A stretch of DNA of 64,000 bases from Natronomonas marina (GTDB lineage: Archaea > Halobacteriota > Halobacteria > Halobacteriales > Haloarculaceae). The DNA lies in contig NZ_CP101154.1 of the NCBI RefSeq assembly GCF_024298905.1, positions 2,604,001 to 2,668,000 of the forward strand, written 5' to 3'. Shown piece after piece: positions 9,454 through 25,839 of this stretch. Under the pieces are notes generated by a model. The model was given only the letters and a program-made list of their open reading frames with translations. It had not been told where the DNA came from and searched no databases. The position numbers and the translations under genes were made by a program. Within the stretch, counting starts at the first letter, position 1. Every line of letters begins with the position of its first letter.

Positions 9454-9965
9454 AGGTCGCGCCGCCGGCCCTTCGGCATCTGGGAGCGCAACTCGTCGTA
9501 GAGGTAGAGACCGACGCCGATGGGTTCGACCCCGCCAGCTATCTCGTGGGCCGCGACGAGGTAGCCCCAGTCGCCGTCCCAGGCGGGGTCGGTCGTCTCG
9601 CCCCGGAGGAACGCCCGCGCCTCCGCGTCGTCCAGCACGACGACGTTTCTCGTCGCCTCCCGGCCGAACCGCTGGACGGCGTCCGTCGTCGGCTTCCAGT
9701 GCTCCTGGCGGGTCCGCAGGAACGTCATACCGAGGGCCTCGACCGCGGCGGGCGAGTCGAGGTCGGCGGCGAAGGCCCACACCTTCCCCGCGCCCTTCTC
9801 CCAGAAGGTGTGGTCCTCGAACGTCGACGGGTCGAGGCCGAACCGCTCGACCCACCAGTCGACGACCGCCCGGCGGGTCGCCCGGCCCTCGACGGTCCGC
9901 TCGTCGGCCGTCGCCGGCAGGCGGTCGAACACCTGGCCGTCGTTTTCCGTTCGCTCGCCGCTCAC
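9450..9965 (-). CDS. PUA-like companion of NOP2/Sun methyltransferase (DUF7122-like)
   Basis: A 171-residue soluble protein starting at a GTG that overlaps the RNA methyltransferase stop by 4 bp. Conserved-looking blocks are HTFWEKGAGKVWAF, GMTFLRTRQEHWKPTT, DWGYLVAAHE and PKGRRRDL at the C-terminus. The arrangement resembles the C-terminal RNA-binding (PUA or MTase-associated) domain that some NOP2/Sun proteins carry as one chain. I infer it is a split-off RNA-binding subunit. The DUF number is from memory and uncertain. Confidence 0.65.
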   Translation of the reverse strand: MSGERTENDGQVFDRLPATADERTVEGRATRRAVVDWWVERFGLDPSTFEDHTFWEKGAGKVWAFAADLDSPAAVEALGMTFLRTRQEHWKPTTDAVQRFGREATRNVVVLDDAEARAFLRGETTDPAWDGDWGYLVAAHEIAGGVEPIGVGLYLYDELRSQMPKGRRRDL

Positions 9966-10873
9966 GCGCCCACCTCCAGTTTCGCACAGAAGAACCCGCC
10001 TGTGTCCTCGTGGTGGGGGTAGACGCGCTTGGCCCGCCGGACCGACCCGTCGTAGCTGTCGCCCTCCCAGTCGGTGACGCCGGGCGCGTGCTCGAGGGCG
10101 AGGTCGAACTCGACGAGGCCGCAGTCGTACTCCGCGAGTGCGTAGTCGAGGACGGCCTCGTTCTCCTCGGGCGCGAAGGTACACGTCGAGTAGACGACGG
10201 TGCCGCCGGCGCGAGTCACTTCGATGGCGCGGCCGAGGATGGCCTTCTGGACGCCGGCGATGCCCTCGACGTGGTCCAAAGACCAGTTGTCCAGGGCGTC
10301 GGGGTTCTTGCGAACGGTCCCCTCACACGAGCAGGGGACGTCGACGAGCGCGCGGTCGAAGGGATCGCCGTCGAACGGTTTCAGCGAGAAGTTCCGGGCG
10401 TCGGTGTTGGTGACGACGGCGTTGGTGACGCCGCAGCGCTCGGCGTTGGCCCGCAGCGCCGACAGCCGCCCGAGGTCGTTGTCGTTGGCGACGAGCAGGC
10501 CGCGGTCGTCCATCAGCGCCGCCAGCTGTGTCGTCTTGCTCCCCGGCGCCGCACAGGGGTCGAAGACGCGCTCGCCGGGCGCGGGGTCGAGGACGCGGGC
10601 CGGGATGGCCGACACCTCCTCCTGGCCGTACACCCACCCGTGGACGAACGGCCAGGTGTTGCCCGGCGATACGTCGTCCGCCAGACGGAACAGGCCGTCG
10701 TGCCACTCGACGCCCTCGTAGCCGACGCCCGTCTCGTCGAAGGCCCGGCGGACGCGTTCCGGCGTCGCCTTGATCGTGTTCGCGCGGACGACCGACGGCA
10801 GCGGCCGCTCGCAGGCCGCGTGGAACGCCGCCGGCTCGTCCACGAGCGAGTCGTACCTTGCGAGCGGATCCAT
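9962..10873 (-). CDS. RNA (cytosine-5) methyltransferase, NOL1/NOP2/Sun family
   Basis: A 303-residue enzyme that methylates C5 of cytosine in rRNA or tRNA using SAM. The SAM-binding loop is FDPCAAPGSKTTQLAAL. The two conserved cysteines are in motif IV (VDVPCSCEGTVRK) and motif VI (YSTCTFAPEENE). The N-terminal ~80 residues form the usual RNA-recognition cap (RANTIKATPERV). ATG 10873 begins MDPLARYDSL, the family's usual start; the longer open frame is not supported. It is first in an operon with the PUA-like gene and a phosphoesterase, each joined by a GTGA overlap. Confidence 0.92.
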   Translation of the reverse strand: MDPLARYDSLVDEPAAFHAACERPLPSVVRANTIKATPERVRRAFDETGVGYEGVEWHDGLFRLADDVSPGNTWPFVHGWVYGQEEVSAIPARVLDPAPGERVFDPCAAPGSKTTQLAALMDDRGLLVANDNDLGRLSALRANAERCGVTNAVVTNTDARNFSLKPFDGDPFDRALVDVPCSCEGTVRKNPDALDNWSLDHVEGIAGVQKAILGRAIEVTRAGGTVVYSTCTFAPEENEAVLDYALAEYDCGLVEFDLALEHAPGVTDWEGDSYDGSVRRAKRVYPHHEDTGGFFCAKLEVGA

Positions 10874-21769: not shown

Positions 21770-22912
21770 ATGGATTTCACCCTCCCCGACGAACACGAGA
21801 TGATCCAGGGTGTGGTTCGTGACTTCTGCGAGGCGGAGATCGAACCCATCGCACAGGAAATCGAGGAGGAACACCGCTTCCCCGAGGAGGTATTCGAGGA
21901 GTTGGCCGATCTCGACCTGATGGGCGTCCCCGTCGCCGAGGAGTACGGCGGCGCCGGCGGTGACTACCTCATGTACGCCGTGGTCGCCGAGGAACTCGGC
22001 CGCGTCTCCGGATCGATCGGCCTCTCGTACGTCGCCCACACGTCGCTGGGGCTGATGCCGATAATCAACTTCGGCACCGAAGAACAGATCGAGAAGTGGG
22101 GCCGCCCGCTCGCGGAGGGCGAGGGCATGGGCGCGTGGGCGCTGACCGAACCCTCCTCGGGGTCGGACGCCTCGGACATGGACACGATGGCCGAGAAGGA
22201 CGGCGACGAGTACGTCATCGACGGCACCAAGCAGTTCATCACGAACGCGAGCGTCGCAAACAGCGTCCTCGTGAAGGCAGTTACCGACCCCGGCGCCGGC
22301 TACGACGGCATCTCGACGTTCATCGTCGACCCCGAGAACGACGACGGCTTCGAGGTCACGAACGTCTGGGACAAGATGGGGCTGAACGCCTCCCCGACCT
22401 GCGAGATTCAACTCGATAACGTCCGCATCCCCGAAGAGCGCCTGCTCGGCGAGGAGGGCGACGGCTGGGACCAGACGAAAAAGACGCTCGACGGCGGCCG
22501 CATCTCCATCGCCGCGCTGTCGACGGGCCTGGGGCAGGGCGCCTTCGACGCCGCCCGCGAGTACGCCACCGAGCGCGAGCAGTTCGACCGGCCCATCTCG
22601 AAGTTCGACGCCATCCGCGACATGATCGTCTCGATGGACCGCAAGGTCGAGCGAGCCCGTCTCCTGACCCACAAGGCGGCGACGATGTACGACGACGGCG
22701 AGGACGTCACCAGGCTGTCCTCGCTGGCGAAACTGGACGCCTCCGAGATCTGCCGCGAGGTGGCGGAGGACGCCGTCCAGGTCCACGGCGGCTACGGCTA
22801 CACCACCGACTTCCCGCCCCAGCGGTTCTACCGCGACGCCAAACTGATGGAGATCGGCGAGGGGACGAGCGAGATTCAGCACCTCGTCCTGGGTCGAGAA
22901 CTGGGTCTCTAG
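21770..22912 (+). CDS. Acyl-CoA dehydrogenase
   Basis: A 380-residue FAD flavoprotein of the short/branched-chain acyl-CoA dehydrogenase group, catalysing alpha,beta-dehydrogenation of acyl-CoA and passing electrons to ETF. It has the N-terminal helical domain (LPDEHEMIQGVVRDF), the signature AWALTEPSSGSDASDM, the middle beta domain (INSxxVANS-like NASVANSVLVKAV) and the C-terminal VHGGYGYTTDFPPQRFYRDA with GEGTSEIQ. Length and motifs are complete. The TAG stop is directly followed by the repeat module described at 22913. Confidence 0.95.
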   Translation: MDFTLPDEHEMIQGVVRDFCEAEIEPIAQEIEEEHRFPEEVFEELADLDLMGVPVAEEYGGAGGDYLMYAVVAEELGRVSGSIGLSYVAHTSLGLMPIINFGTEEQIEKWGRPLAEGEGMGAWALTEPSSGSDASDMDTMAEKDGDEYVIDGTKQFITNASVANSVLVKAVTDPGAGYDGISTFIVDPENDDGFEVTNVWDKMGLNASPTCEIQLDNVRIPEERLLGEEGDGWDQTKKTLDGGRISIAALSTGLGQGAFDAAREYATEREQFDRPISKFDAIRDMIVSMDRKVERARLLTHKAATMYDDGEDVTRLSSLAKLDASEICREVAEDAVQVHGGYGYTTDFPPQRFYRDAKLMEIGEGTSEIQHLVLGRELGL

Positions 22913-22990
22913 ACCCACTTTTTGCACGCGAACGCGGGTCGCGCCGCAGGCGCGACACCGGTTCGTGGCAAAAACTTGGGGAAAAATAGC
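22913..22990 (+). repeat. Post-gene repeat module, left copy (T-run, GC stem, AACTTGGGGAAAA box)
   Basis: Starting at the base after the acyl-CoA dehydrogenase stop, ACCCACTTTTT (22913-22923) is followed by a GC-rich partial inverted repeat and then CAAAAACTTGGGGAAAAAT (22969-22987). The same two boxes in the same order follow the stop of the NAD-kinase-like gene on the other strand (25839 down to 25753). Sequence between the boxes is not conserved. The T-run could be a transcription terminator; the second box is unexplained. Confidence 0.65.
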
Positions 22991-23223
22991 TCCTCGCTCC
23001 CTCCGGTCGCTCGTCGCTACCGGCGCTCGGTCGCTGTGCTCCCTCACGCCGGAGAACCGCCTCGGGGGCGACCTTCGGACGCCCCCTCGGCGGATTTCGA
23101 GTCCGAACGTCGAATCGGTCGATATAGGGGATACACATACCAGTGTACAACTCAATCTAGTGCTTCATCAACGAAAAACCGATAGATCCTCTATATAGAA
23201 AATATGTCACAAGCATCTAAAAG
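22991..23223. other. Noncoding gap between repeat module and regulator gene
   Basis: No gene seen. The first ~100 bp continue GC-rich with CTCGCTCCCTCCGGTCGCTCG-like repetition. From about 23110 the composition turns AT-rich (GTACAACTCAATC, CTATATAGAAAATATG) up to the end of the regulator gene, marking the left edge of an island of foreign composition. Confidence 0.5.
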
Positions 23224-23895
23224 TCACGACTGAAGTTCTACGAGCGCCTTGATAAGTTTCACTTCCGCTTTCTGGAGGTGTTCACTGACCGTGTTGGCCG
23301 CGCACCCAAGCTCTTCGGCTAATTCTGCGTGAGTTGTCTCTCGGGGATGCTGATAGTACCCGTGTTCGAACGCGGTAAAAACCGCCTCACGCTGCCGATT
23401 GCTCAGTTCAAAAAATGGGTCCGTCCGTTGCGACGGACGTGACCCAATGTTCTCGATTGTCACGTCGATAGTCCGTGGTGCGGCGTCAACCGCGGTTTGC
23501 AGTGCCGAAGCGTCTCCCACCACCTCACCTCTTGTTTCGAAGTCGCTGTACACGACTGGAGACCTGACGAGCAACCCCGCTCGCGCCGTCAACACGAGAA
23601 ACGTCCTAAAGAACGGGAGTGCGTCGGGATTCGCCGTGACCAACACGTACCCCGAACCACCGGTAGAAGTGGGTGCCGCGACATCCTCGATTCCATCGGT
23701 GCCACGCGCTGCATCAACGAACACACTCGTGTCACCGTCAACGTCGTACAGAACAGTTGCTAGGTCCTCTGCTGCAAGATTCCAGTCAACGAGACGCAGT
23801 TGCGAGACCGCTGGCGACTCTGTCACCGTGGCGTAAAATGACGGAAGGACTGTGGGAGCCAGCGACGCTGAAACCTGAAGTCGAGTCAACGACAT
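23224..23895 (-). CDS. HTH_10 (bacterio-opsin activator-like) transcription regulator
   Basis: A 223-residue regulator. The C-terminal ~55 residues are the HTH_10 domain found in Bat-like haloarchaeal regulators: LSNRQREAVFTAFEHGYY, then HAELAEELGCAANTVSEHLQ, then KAEVKLIKAL. The N-terminal ~160 residues are a beta/alpha sensor part (bacterioopsin-activator GAF/HTH-associated type) without PAS or GAF motifs I can name. It is divergent from, and shares a TATA region with, the amidohydrolase gene, so it likely regulates it. Its base composition is clearly lower in G+C than flanking genes, suggesting acquisition. Confidence 0.88.
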   Translation of the reverse strand: MSLTRLQVSASLAPTVLPSFYATVTESPAVSQLRLVDWNLAAEDLATVLYDVDGDTSVFVDAARGTDGIEDVAAPTSTGGSGYVLVTANPDALPFFRTFLVLTARAGLLVRSPVVYSDFETRGEVVGDASALQTAVDAAPRTIDVTIENIGSRPSQRTDPFFELSNRQREAVFTAFEHGYYQHPRETTHAELAEELGCAANTVSEHLQKAEVKLIKALVELQS

Positions 23896-23928
23896 CGGCA
23901 GAGCGTACCTCTCATTTCACCAGCTCTG

Positions 23929-23936
23929 TTTAAAAA
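23929..23936. promoter_or_regulatory. Shared divergent TATA element TTTAAAAA
   Basis: The only TATA-like sequence between the divergent regulator and amidohydrolase genes. It is 34-41 nt upstream of the regulator start and 56-63 nt upstream of ATG 23992, but only 5 nt from ATG 23941. This argues for 23992 as the amidohydrolase start and for coordinated control. Confidence 0.45.
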
Positions 23937-23991
23937 TCCCATGACAATACTCGGCAGTAGGCTCACCGGACGACCCCTCTTACCTCCAATT

Positions 23992-25506
23992 ATGACGCCA
24001 GATGCCGCTGAGTTGGGAGACAACACTGAGGTCGCGGTCAACGACGCGGATCTCGTAGTACACGACGCAGTGGTTGTGACTGTAGACGAAGATAACAGAA
24101 TCTACCGGAACGGCACGGTTGTAGTCGAAGACGGTGTCCTCACCGACGTGCGAACGACACGAGACGGTGACCGAGACTGTGACGCCGACCGTGTCATCGA
24201 CGGCAAGGGCACCCTCGTGATGCCGGGGCTCGTCAACGCACACACCCACCTGGAGCTGACGCCATTGCTCGGCGCGTTCAGTGACCTCGACCTATTGGAG
24301 ATGATGAGCGGAATGACCGCCATTTTCGGTCACATCGCTGACGGCGAATACGACTACCTTACCGACGCGGGATACGAACTCGCCGCACTCAACTTCCTCG
24401 CAGGCGGTGTCACGACCGTCAACTCGATGGACGTACGTCCCAGCGGGGGCGCAGAGACGTTCGGCGAGGCTGGCCTCCGCGGATTCTTTGGGATGGCGCT
24501 CTCCGATCTCTTCTGGGACGTCCCGGTCGATAAGCAGTTCGAACGCGCCCGCGAGTTTATTGACGAGTACCACGGTGCGTACGGCGGCCGCATCCGGGCA
24601 ACGATCAATCCCCATGATGACTGGTCGTGTACACGAGCGCTGTGGGAGCGTACTGCCGCCCTCGCTGACGAATATCCTGATCTACTCGTTCACACGCATC
24701 TGCTCGAACTGGAGGCGAGTAATACGATGGCGCGGTCAAATGGTGCCGAGGACTCGCTCGACCTGCTTGACGACATCGGTCTCCTTGACGATCGGCTGGT
24801 GGCCGCTCACTTCCGGCTGGCCAACAACGAGGATATCCAGCGAACTGCTGACGCGAACGCGTCGGTTGCACACTGCCCGTCGATTTTCGCGTACTGGAAC
24901 ACGGACGGCGACGTGCAGTGGACGCCTGTGCCGGAGCTTCGGGACGCGAGCGTCGATGTTGGGCTGGGCATCGACGACCATTACTGGCACGACTCCTACA
25001 GCCTGTTCGGCGAAGCACGGCAGGCCCGGCTCGCAGCTAATCTCAAACGGTCAACGGGGCAGTACCACTCAATGGAGCTGGTGCGGATGCTCACCATCGA
25101 AGGGGCAGCGGCACTCGGAATTGATGACGAGGTCGGGAGTCTCGAACCCGGGAAGTGCGCCGACGTCATCGTGCTTGACATCGAGAAGCCGAAGTTCATC
25201 CCCGTGACCAATATCCCGGCACAGATCGTCAACAACGCGGTACCCGCCGACGTGAAGACAGTCATCGTGGACGGTGACGTGCTGATGCGAGACGGTGATG
25301 TGAAAACAATGGATACCGACGCCGTGCGTGAGCAGGTCGAATCTGCCGTTGAGCGTTTCGAGTCGGAGACGGACTGGGAACTCGGGGTCGGCGGGAGTGA
25401 CCCGCCGAGTAAGTTGAATGTTGCCCACGACCTGCCGAAGCGCGGCCCCAGTCAGTTGCTCGGACGGCTCGCGTTCCAGTCGGCTAAGGATCAATTCCCA
25501 TTCTGA
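23992..25506 (+). CDS. Amidohydrolase of the Atz/Trz (chlorohydrolase/deaminase) family
   Basis: A cytosolic metal-dependent hydrolase of 504 residues from ATG 23992; an in-frame ATG at 23941 would add 17. Family features are the opening ADLVVHDAVVVTVDEDN, metal motif GLVNAHTHLEL, LLVHTHLLEL, the third His region LVAAHFRL, AHCPSIF and the metal Asp in GLGIDDHYWHDS; the C-terminal beta strip is GSLEPGKCADVIVLD. Relatives deaminate or dechlorinate triazines, guanine, S-adenosylhomocysteine or cytosine-like heterocycles. The substrate here is unknown. Composition is AT-richer than average. Divergent from an HTH_10 regulator, forming an apparent acquired catabolic pair. Confidence 0.88.
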   Translation: MTPDAAELGDNTEVAVNDADLVVHDAVVVTVDEDNRIYRNGTVVVEDGVLTDVRTTRDGDRDCDADRVIDGKGTLVMPGLVNAHTHLELTPLLGAFSDLDLLEMMSGMTAIFGHIADGEYDYLTDAGYELAALNFLAGGVTTVNSMDVRPSGGAETFGEAGLRGFFGMALSDLFWDVPVDKQFERAREFIDEYHGAYGGRIRATINPHDDWSCTRALWERTAALADEYPDLLVHTHLLELEASNTMARSNGAEDSLDLLDDIGLLDDRLVAAHFRLANNEDIQRTADANASVAHCPSIFAYWNTDGDVQWTPVPELRDASVDVGLGIDDHYWHDSYSLFGEARQARLAANLKRSTGQYHSMELVRMLTIEGAAALGIDDEVGSLEPGKCADVIVLDIEKPKFIPVTNIPAQIVNNAVPADVKTVIVDGDVLMRDGDVKTMDTDAVREQVESAVERFESETDWELGVGGSDPPSKLNVAHDLPKRGPSQLLGRLAFQSAKDQFPF

Positions 25507-25680
25507 GAGGGTGTCATAGAACTGCCTCAGGAGATGTGCGTACCGGTGACATTCGGCGGCCAGCGGTATCTAGACGCCGAAGACGTGATTCACCTCATCA
25601 GATTCTCCGACAGTCCGCTGGATTGCTAAGTACGCAAGCCCATTCTCGCAGCCGATTCGGATACGGACAACCGAAATTAT
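25507..25680 (-). other. Noncoding, possibly decayed coding remnant
   Basis: AT-richer sequence between the amidohydrolase stop and the right repeat module. On the minus strand a short frame reads VRIRIGCENGLAYLAIQ, then ESDEVNHVFGV and a stop, followed without ATG by more open codons ending RQFYDTL. It looks protein-like but has no start or complete domain, so it may be a decayed gene or element end. The function cannot be named. Confidence 0.35.
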
Positions 25681-25752
25681 TCCGCGAGCATACCGCGACG
25701 AGCGAAGCGAGTCGCGGTTTCGCCGGCGGCGAACGCAGTGAGCCGCCGGGGG

Positions 25753-25839
25753 ATTTTTCCCCAAGTTTTTACGAGGAGTGGTTCCCGCAGCGCGACCCGC
25801 AGGGTCGCGCGAGGAAACCCGACGAAGTAAAAAGTGGGT
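25753..25839 (-). repeat. Post-gene repeat module, right copy
   Basis: On the minus strand, directly after the stop of the NAD-kinase-like gene: ACCCACTTTTT (25839-25829), a GC-rich perfect-looking stem (GCGCGACC / GGTCGCGC, about 25796-25810), then AAAAACTTGGGGAAAAAT (25770-25753). It is the inverted counterpart of the module at 22913-22990, so the 23-25.7 kb island lies between two oppositely oriented copies. Beyond it (25681-25752) are further inverted GC repeats (CCGGCGGCGAACGC / AGTGAGCCGCCGGG). Confidence 0.65.

What the first reader, a model, noticed from the sequence alone, without database searches (positions are those of the whole stretch)
22913..22990. Recurring post-stop module: T-run, GC stem, then AAAAACTTGGGGAAAAAT
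Two unrelated genes on opposite strands each have, starting right after the stop, ACCCACTTTTT then, 45-57 nt on, the same 18-nt box AAAAACTTGGGGAAAAAT (22970-22987 and 25770-25753). Intervening sequence is not conserved apart from being GC-rich and palindromic. Shared flanking boxes with variable stems point to selection on the boxes, perhaps as a transcription terminator or RNA-processing signal, or a mobile repeat family that targets gene ends.
Basis: partly seen in the sequence, partly recalled or inferred. Interest (0 to 1): 0.6.

Follow-up and report, generated by a model that had tools for sequence, protein, structure and literature searches.

The report
Haloarchaeal gene-end hairpin repeat
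Right behind the stop codons of two genes sits a repeated DNA element made of a T-run and several hairpins; it recurs at gene ends across salt-loving archaea and most likely acts as a stop sign for transcription that also spreads between genes.

Summary
The 'boxes' are not free-standing motifs: CCCAC-TTTTT and AAAAACTTGGG are the two strands of one closing helix. The element is longer than reported: T5, hairpin H1, A5, closing strand, A-run, hairpins H2/H3, end G(G/T)ATGCT, usually 130-240 bp.

The own genome holds 4 exact copies plus 19 one-base variants. The family occurs across haloarchaeal families, with almost no hits for the reversed pattern. The closing helix covaries: CCCAC/GTGGG, CGAC/GTCG, CGAA/TTCG, GAAC/GTTC.

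In the own genome the left end lies 0-5 nt after a stop codon in 21 of 22 copies, against 3% for random intergenic placement. Two exceptions elsewhere follow copies of tRNA 3' ends.

Copies come and go at syntenic sites, and similar stems recur at unrelated genes. A few are flanked by 27-81 bp direct repeats of the neighbouring gene's 3' end. Only about 5% of gene ends carry one, even in stretches chosen around copies.

Best reading: a repeat-borne, probably bidirectional terminator cassette. Architecture and placement are shown; termination is inferred. No Rfam or literature match was found.

The parts
22913..22923 (+). Element 1, left strand of closing helix (ACCCAC) and T5 tract, directly behind the stop TAG 22910-22912
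   Evidence: Sequence; pairs with 22970-22980 in the fold; same position in other copies
22924..22969 (+). Element 1, variable hairpin H1
   Evidence: Fold z -6.6 for 22913-22990
22970..22987 (+). Element 1, A5 tract, right strand of closing helix and second A-run (the 18-mer); on the - strand it reads ATTTTTCCCCAAGTTTTT
22988..23098 (+). Element 1, downstream hairpins and right end GGCGGATTTC (divergent form of GCGGATGCT)
   Evidence: Comparison with other copies, fold, end position; boundary approximate
25829..25839 (-). Element 2, left strand of closing helix and T5 tract, directly behind the stop at 25842-25840
25771..25828 (-). Element 2, variable hairpin H1; a similar H1 follows an unrelated gene in G122
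   Evidence: Fold z -5.3; H1 alignment score 53 over 58 nt with unrelated flanks
25753..25770 (-). Element 2, A5 tract, right strand of closing helix and second A-run (the 18-mer)
25685..25752 (-). Element 2, hairpins H2 and H3, CGAAA linker and right end TATGCTCG
21770..22912 (+). Gene in front of element 1: acyl-CoA dehydrogenase
   Evidence: Pfam PF00441, PF02770, PF02771
25840..26964 (-). Gene in front of element 2: NAD-kinase-like protein (start codon uncertain)
   Evidence: Pfam PF01513, PF20143; gene call

Best explanation
Both sites are copies of a haloarchaeal family of modular, multi-hairpin intergenic elements. SHOWN: each copy starts with a 4-5 nt strand and a T5 tract directly behind a gene end. 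It then carries a variable hairpin H1, an A5 tract, the complementary strand that closes the helix, a second A-run, and one to three further hairpins ending in G(G/T)ATGCT. SHOWN: the closing helix covaries, and the stems differ between copies but stay self-complementary. SHOWN: copies differ in presence between related genomes, and similar stems occur at non-orthologous genes. INFERRED: the T5 tract 4-9 nt after the stop is a U-tract transcription terminator for the gene in front. The two T5 tracts on the opposite strand (TTTTTCCCCAAGTTTTT), preceded there by H3/H2, do the same for transcription coming the other way. INFERRED: the family disperses as a REP/MITE-like repeat, by an unknown route that sometimes duplicates 27-81 bp of the neighbouring gene end.
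For: Multi-copy and not chance. Left end 0-5 nt after a stop in 21/22 own-genome copies, 14/24 in G003 and 4/5 in G122 within 12 nt, against 3.2-3.5% for random intergenic insertion. T run starts 4-9 nt after the stop in 21/22. CCAC(N)TTTT within 30 nt of a stop came with the box in 22 of 23 cases, the exception being a truncated copy. Two outliers follow tRNA 3'-end copies. Covariation of closing helix, H1, H2 and H3. Convergent gaps favoured, no divergent ones in G000. A T5C tract stops 95% of transcripts in a Haloferax reporter (PMC7237163). Dispersal.
Against: No RNA data. For the gene in front, the T5 precedes the hairpins, so the hairpins are not needed for a plain U-tract terminator and their role is unexplained. 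Only about 5% of gene ends have the element even in enriched samples and a congener has none in 400 kb, so it is dispensable. Some G003 copies lie in divergent or antisense positions. No mobilising enzyme was identified, and only a few of 46 copies show long direct repeats.
Confidence: 0.62

Rival explanations
1. A purely selfish REP/MITE-like repeat. Its location behind stop codons reflects where insertion is tolerated or targeted, and the T-runs have no termination role.
For: Patchy presence within one genus; syntenic sites with and without it; similar stems at unrelated genes; direct repeats of gene ends around some copies; five own-genome copies share a further stretch beyond the right end.
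Against: Tolerance alone does not explain 0-5 nt from the stop also in wide tandem gaps, nor presence directly behind tRNA 3' ends, nor the same architecture with a changed but still paired closing helix at the KaiC-like gene end of ten congeners.
Confidence: 0.22
2. An RNA-processing or 3'-end stability element: the whole element is transcribed and its hairpins protect or mark the mRNA end.
For: Covarying stems and conserved short linkers such as GGGGAAAA, GTGAAA and TATGCT.
Against: T5 directly behind the stop should end most transcripts before the hairpins are made, if it works as in Haloferax (PMC7237163). DNA-level reasons for hairpins, such as mobility, are equally possible.
Confidence: 0.12
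3. Chance similarity of two GC-rich palindromes flanked by A/T runs.
For: GC-rich palindromes are common between haloarchaeal genes (seen).
Against: Many copies against almost none for the reversed pattern; placement; covariation.
Confidence: 0.005

Closest known systems
Archaeal U-tract terminators (T5C type of Haloferax volcanii, PMC7237163; U-tract plus aCPSF1 in Methanococcus, abstract of PMC8716108)
   Same: A T5 tract a few nt behind the gene, with a C one or two bases further on; excess at gene ends.
   Different: Here the T5 is part of a covarying helix and a larger repeated multi-hairpin element, present at few genes, with T5 tracts on both strands.
Rho-independent terminators of bacteria, including bidirectional ones
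   Same: On the - strand of the element, GC hairpins are followed by T-runs.
   Different: For the gene in front, the T-run comes before, not after, the hairpin; the hairpins are long and multiple.
REP/BIME repeats (RAYT-mobilised) and MITEs of bacteria
   Same: Short, non-coding, palindromic, intergenic, multi-copy, mosaic, patchy between relatives.
   Different: Stems differ almost completely between many copies while short linkers are shared; fixed position behind stop codons; direct repeats, where present, are long and variable (27-81 bp) and consist of gene 3' ends; no partner transposase identified.

Membership tests
Archaeal U-tract terminator | T tract of about 5 close behind the gene | tested here: met
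   T run starts 4-9 nt after the stop in 21 of 22 own-genome hits
Archaeal U-tract terminator | RNA 3' ends at the T tract and termination in a reporter | not testable with these tools
   No RNA data; T5C works in Haloferax (PMC7237163)
Bacterial-type Rho-independent terminator | GC hairpin directly followed by a U-run on the transcribed strand | tested here: not met
   For the gene in front the T5 precedes H1. On the opposite strand T-runs do follow H2/H3
REP/BIME repeats | Dispersed intergenic palindromic repeat in many copies | tested here: met
   none inside called genes in the G000 sample
REP/BIME repeats | Associated RAYT transposase and conserved foot tetranucleotide | not tested
   No transposase profile was run against copy number
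MITE | Short target-site duplication of fixed length | tested here: not met
   Only a few of 46 copies have direct repeats, and these are long and variable
MITE | Terminal inverted repeats and a related autonomous transposon | tested here: inconclusive
   The closing helix is inverted but internal to the element; left end CCAC and right end ATGCTGG are not clear inverted repeats; no autonomous partner sought
Any Rfam family | Match to a covariance model of Rfam 15 | tested here: not met
   No match over the elements at E<=1; the only hit (SSRC10, E 0.16, below gathering score) lies inside the HTH gene

The most novel reading that the evidence does not exclude
A mobile terminator cassette: an element that inserts beside a hairpin at gene 3' ends, duplicating a variable stretch of the host gene's end (27-81 bp, as in target-primed or repair-like insertion). 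It carries outward-facing U-tracts that insulate genes, and its stems are rewritten while their pairing is kept, so gene ends in haloarchaea are remodelled by a transmissible terminator family.
Probability: 0.22. Interest if true: 0.78.

Novelty: new variant of a known kind. Interest (0 to 1): 0.55.

Why it matters
Termination in haloarchaea is described mainly as T-stretches. A repeat family that supplies outward T-runs on both sides of covarying hairpins, flush with stop codons, and that is gained and lost between close relatives would show how gene ends and convergent gene borders evolve. It would also give ready-made test objects for archaeal termination. It is a caution, too, that a conserved box can be one strand of a helix rather than a protein site.

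Tried and rejected
Exact-box search as a family definition: too narrow, because genomes use other versions of the closing helix. Idea that genomes without the box use a substitute box after most genes: no such post-stop motif in 400 kb of G123. Strict vertical inheritance as the sole explanation: rejected by presence/absence at syntenic pairs and by shared stems at unrelated genes. Rfam: nothing over the elements. Literature: none of six box sequences occurs in any held paper, and searches for haloarchaeal repeats or palindromic terminators gave no description; the library is open-access only, and one paper sought by DOI was not held. A first codon-only gene caller put the NAD kinase gene on the wrong strand and was replaced.

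Full report
OBSERVATION. The two sites are exactly as described. The 13-mer core has 2 exact hits in the window against 0.13 expected with 2 mismatches allowed, and 4 exact hits in the 3.99 Mb genome with none for the reversed pattern. Folding shows that ACCCACTTTTT and AAAAACTTGGGG are the two strands of one hairpin base; the hairpins fold far better than shuffles (z -6.6, -5.3).

THE FAMILY IN THE OWN GENOME. Allowing mismatches reveals 20 more places at one mismatch, 19 of them AAAACGTGGGGAAAA; AAAACKTGGGGAAAA counts 23. The other two TTGGGG copies follow genes whose C-termini read like an acyl-CoA dehydrogenase and a succinyl-CoA synthetase alpha subunit (names by eye). Aligned by eye, the copies share more than the box: box, then a TATGCGCG or AACT-type linker, hairpin H2, a GCTACGGCG or GTGAAA/CGAAA linker, H3, GGAACCGC-H4 in many, and an end GCGGATGCTGG or GTATGCTGG. 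H2 and H3 arms match their own partners better than swapped ones (H2 -26.4 against -21.3, H3 -16.0 against -11.6 kcal/mol).

DISTRIBUTION. In the own family 63 of 146 genomes hold exact copies, with one reversed-control hit. In the order the box with K is common in families f1, f9, f3 and f7, and rare or absent in f2, f4, f5 and f10. A looser pattern AAAAACKTNNNNGAAAA finds 121 of 213 genomes including members of those families, again with few controls. Named records with the module include Haloarcula, Halosimplex, Natronomonas, Halapricum, Salinibaculum, Halococcus and Halobacterium. Most bacterial hits were not examined and are taken as chance for an A-rich 16-mer in 257 billion bases. The window's genus is probably Natronomonas: the G118 element at the pyrF locus has the same sequence as one in Natronomonas gomsonensis (inference).

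COVARIATION. At the KaiC-like gene end, congeners carry CCCAC-T..A5-CGTGGG, CGAAC-T5..A5-CTTCG, GAACC-T5..A5-CGTTC, CGACC-T6..A6-CGTCG and CACCC..GGGTG. Over 153 boxes chosen without reference to the arm, 104 pair with their own arm, against a mean of 69 and a maximum of 79 when arms are shuffled. The sequences are related, so this is not a probability, but the arm types change as sets. H1 halves of 89 distinct stems pair at -28.0 against -16.7 kcal/mol when swapped; these H1s were collected with both boxes required.

POSITION. Genes were called with a Markov-model script, which misses some AT-rich genes such as 23224-23895. In G000 the left end lies 0-5 nt after a same-strand stop in 21 of 22 copies; in G003 14 of 24 and in G122 4 of 5 lie within 12 nt; random intergenic insertion gives 3.2-3.5%. 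G000 and G003 stretches were chosen around box hits; the G122 and G123 stretches were not. Two outliers lie directly behind a duplicated tRNA 3' end, apparently an attachment-site copy (the tRNA next to the G122 copy was read by eye). Convergent gaps are favoured (13 of 22 in G000, where the sample has only 32 such gaps of 100 nt or more against 80 tandem), and divergent gaps are avoided in G000 (0 of 22; 3 of 24 in G003).

GAIN, LOSS AND DISPERSAL. The NAD-kinase-like gene carries an element in 4 of 15 readable genomes of the genus, plus a decayed one in G122; the acyl-CoA dehydrogenase gene only in G000 of 11. The convergent pyrF/zinc-finger pair has a 200-nt gap with the element in G000, gaps of 0-31 nt without it in four congeners, and apparent remnants in G117 and G125. 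In genus g2, ileS (38 bp), hisH (56 bp), gltA (about 80 bp, by eye) and one further gene (75 bp) have the element between two copies of the gene's 3' end in G003. Alignment scores are 28, 41 and 65 for the three that were scored; the null 99th percentile is 15.5 and the null maximum 30.5, so the ileS case alone is not decisive. Orthologs show a single copy of [gene end + H3] in G006 (hisH) and G005 (ileS), against the element between two copies in G005 (hisH) and G006 (ileS), with the same outer flank (read by eye). The direction of change is not proven, but a direct repeat flanking an insert needs an insertion or duplication event. Stems at least about 86% alike occur at 16 pairs of sites with unrelated upstream flanks, one of them window element 2 and a copy in G122.

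MECHANISM. The T5 right behind the stop, with a C two bases further on, resembles the T5C terminator that stops 95% of transcripts in a Haloferax reporter (PMC7237163). On the opposite strand two T5 runs follow H3/H2. The simplest reading is an outward-facing, bidirectional U-tract terminator. The hairpins are not required for that reading; they may separate the two T-runs, protect ends, or be what the dispersal machinery recognises. This step is inference. Because only 22 of 458 gene ends carry it even in enriched stretches, it is a supplementary, not the general, terminator.

PRIOR KNOWLEDGE. No Rfam match lies over the elements, and no paper in the held library contains any of six box versions. 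The library holds open-access papers only, so a prior description cannot be excluded.

Noticed in passing
window 23100-25685: The two elements, in inverted orientation, flank a 2.6 kb stretch of lower GC (0.579 against 0.685 for the window) with an HTH_10 regulator and an amidohydrolase; possibly acquired DNA bounded by elements.
   Followed up: partly
L187, L194, L197, L201, L204 (own genome): Five copies share a further stretch containing TCGTTTCAGTTT..GTGAATC at a fixed 29-32 nt beyond GGATGC, not found without the element in the samples.
   Followed up: partly
L190 and L194: Copies apparently interrupted by the same gene (protein MTGREKEVVRHLSEED..., probably a transposase by its repeated occurrence); L186 also lacks its left half.
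   Followed up: no
L219 near 9579-10000 and G122:C1 near 212000: Duplicated tRNA 3' ends with the element right behind the second copy, looking like attachment-site scars of integrated elements.
   Followed up: partly
G003 loci L206, L217, L218, L220, L222: A second intergenic repeat containing CAGCAGGCCTGCCCTTCC often follows the element in genome G003 and also forms the 25 bp direct repeat around the L218 copy.
   Followed up: no
window 23000-23080 and 25690-25750, and most copies: Many hairpins have the form GCTC-N-CT(T/G/C)CG-N'-TCGC with a covarying N pair; on the other strand this gives tandem G-A mismatches (GCGA..TGAGC), a known stable hairpin type (own knowledge for the stability).
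   Followed up: no
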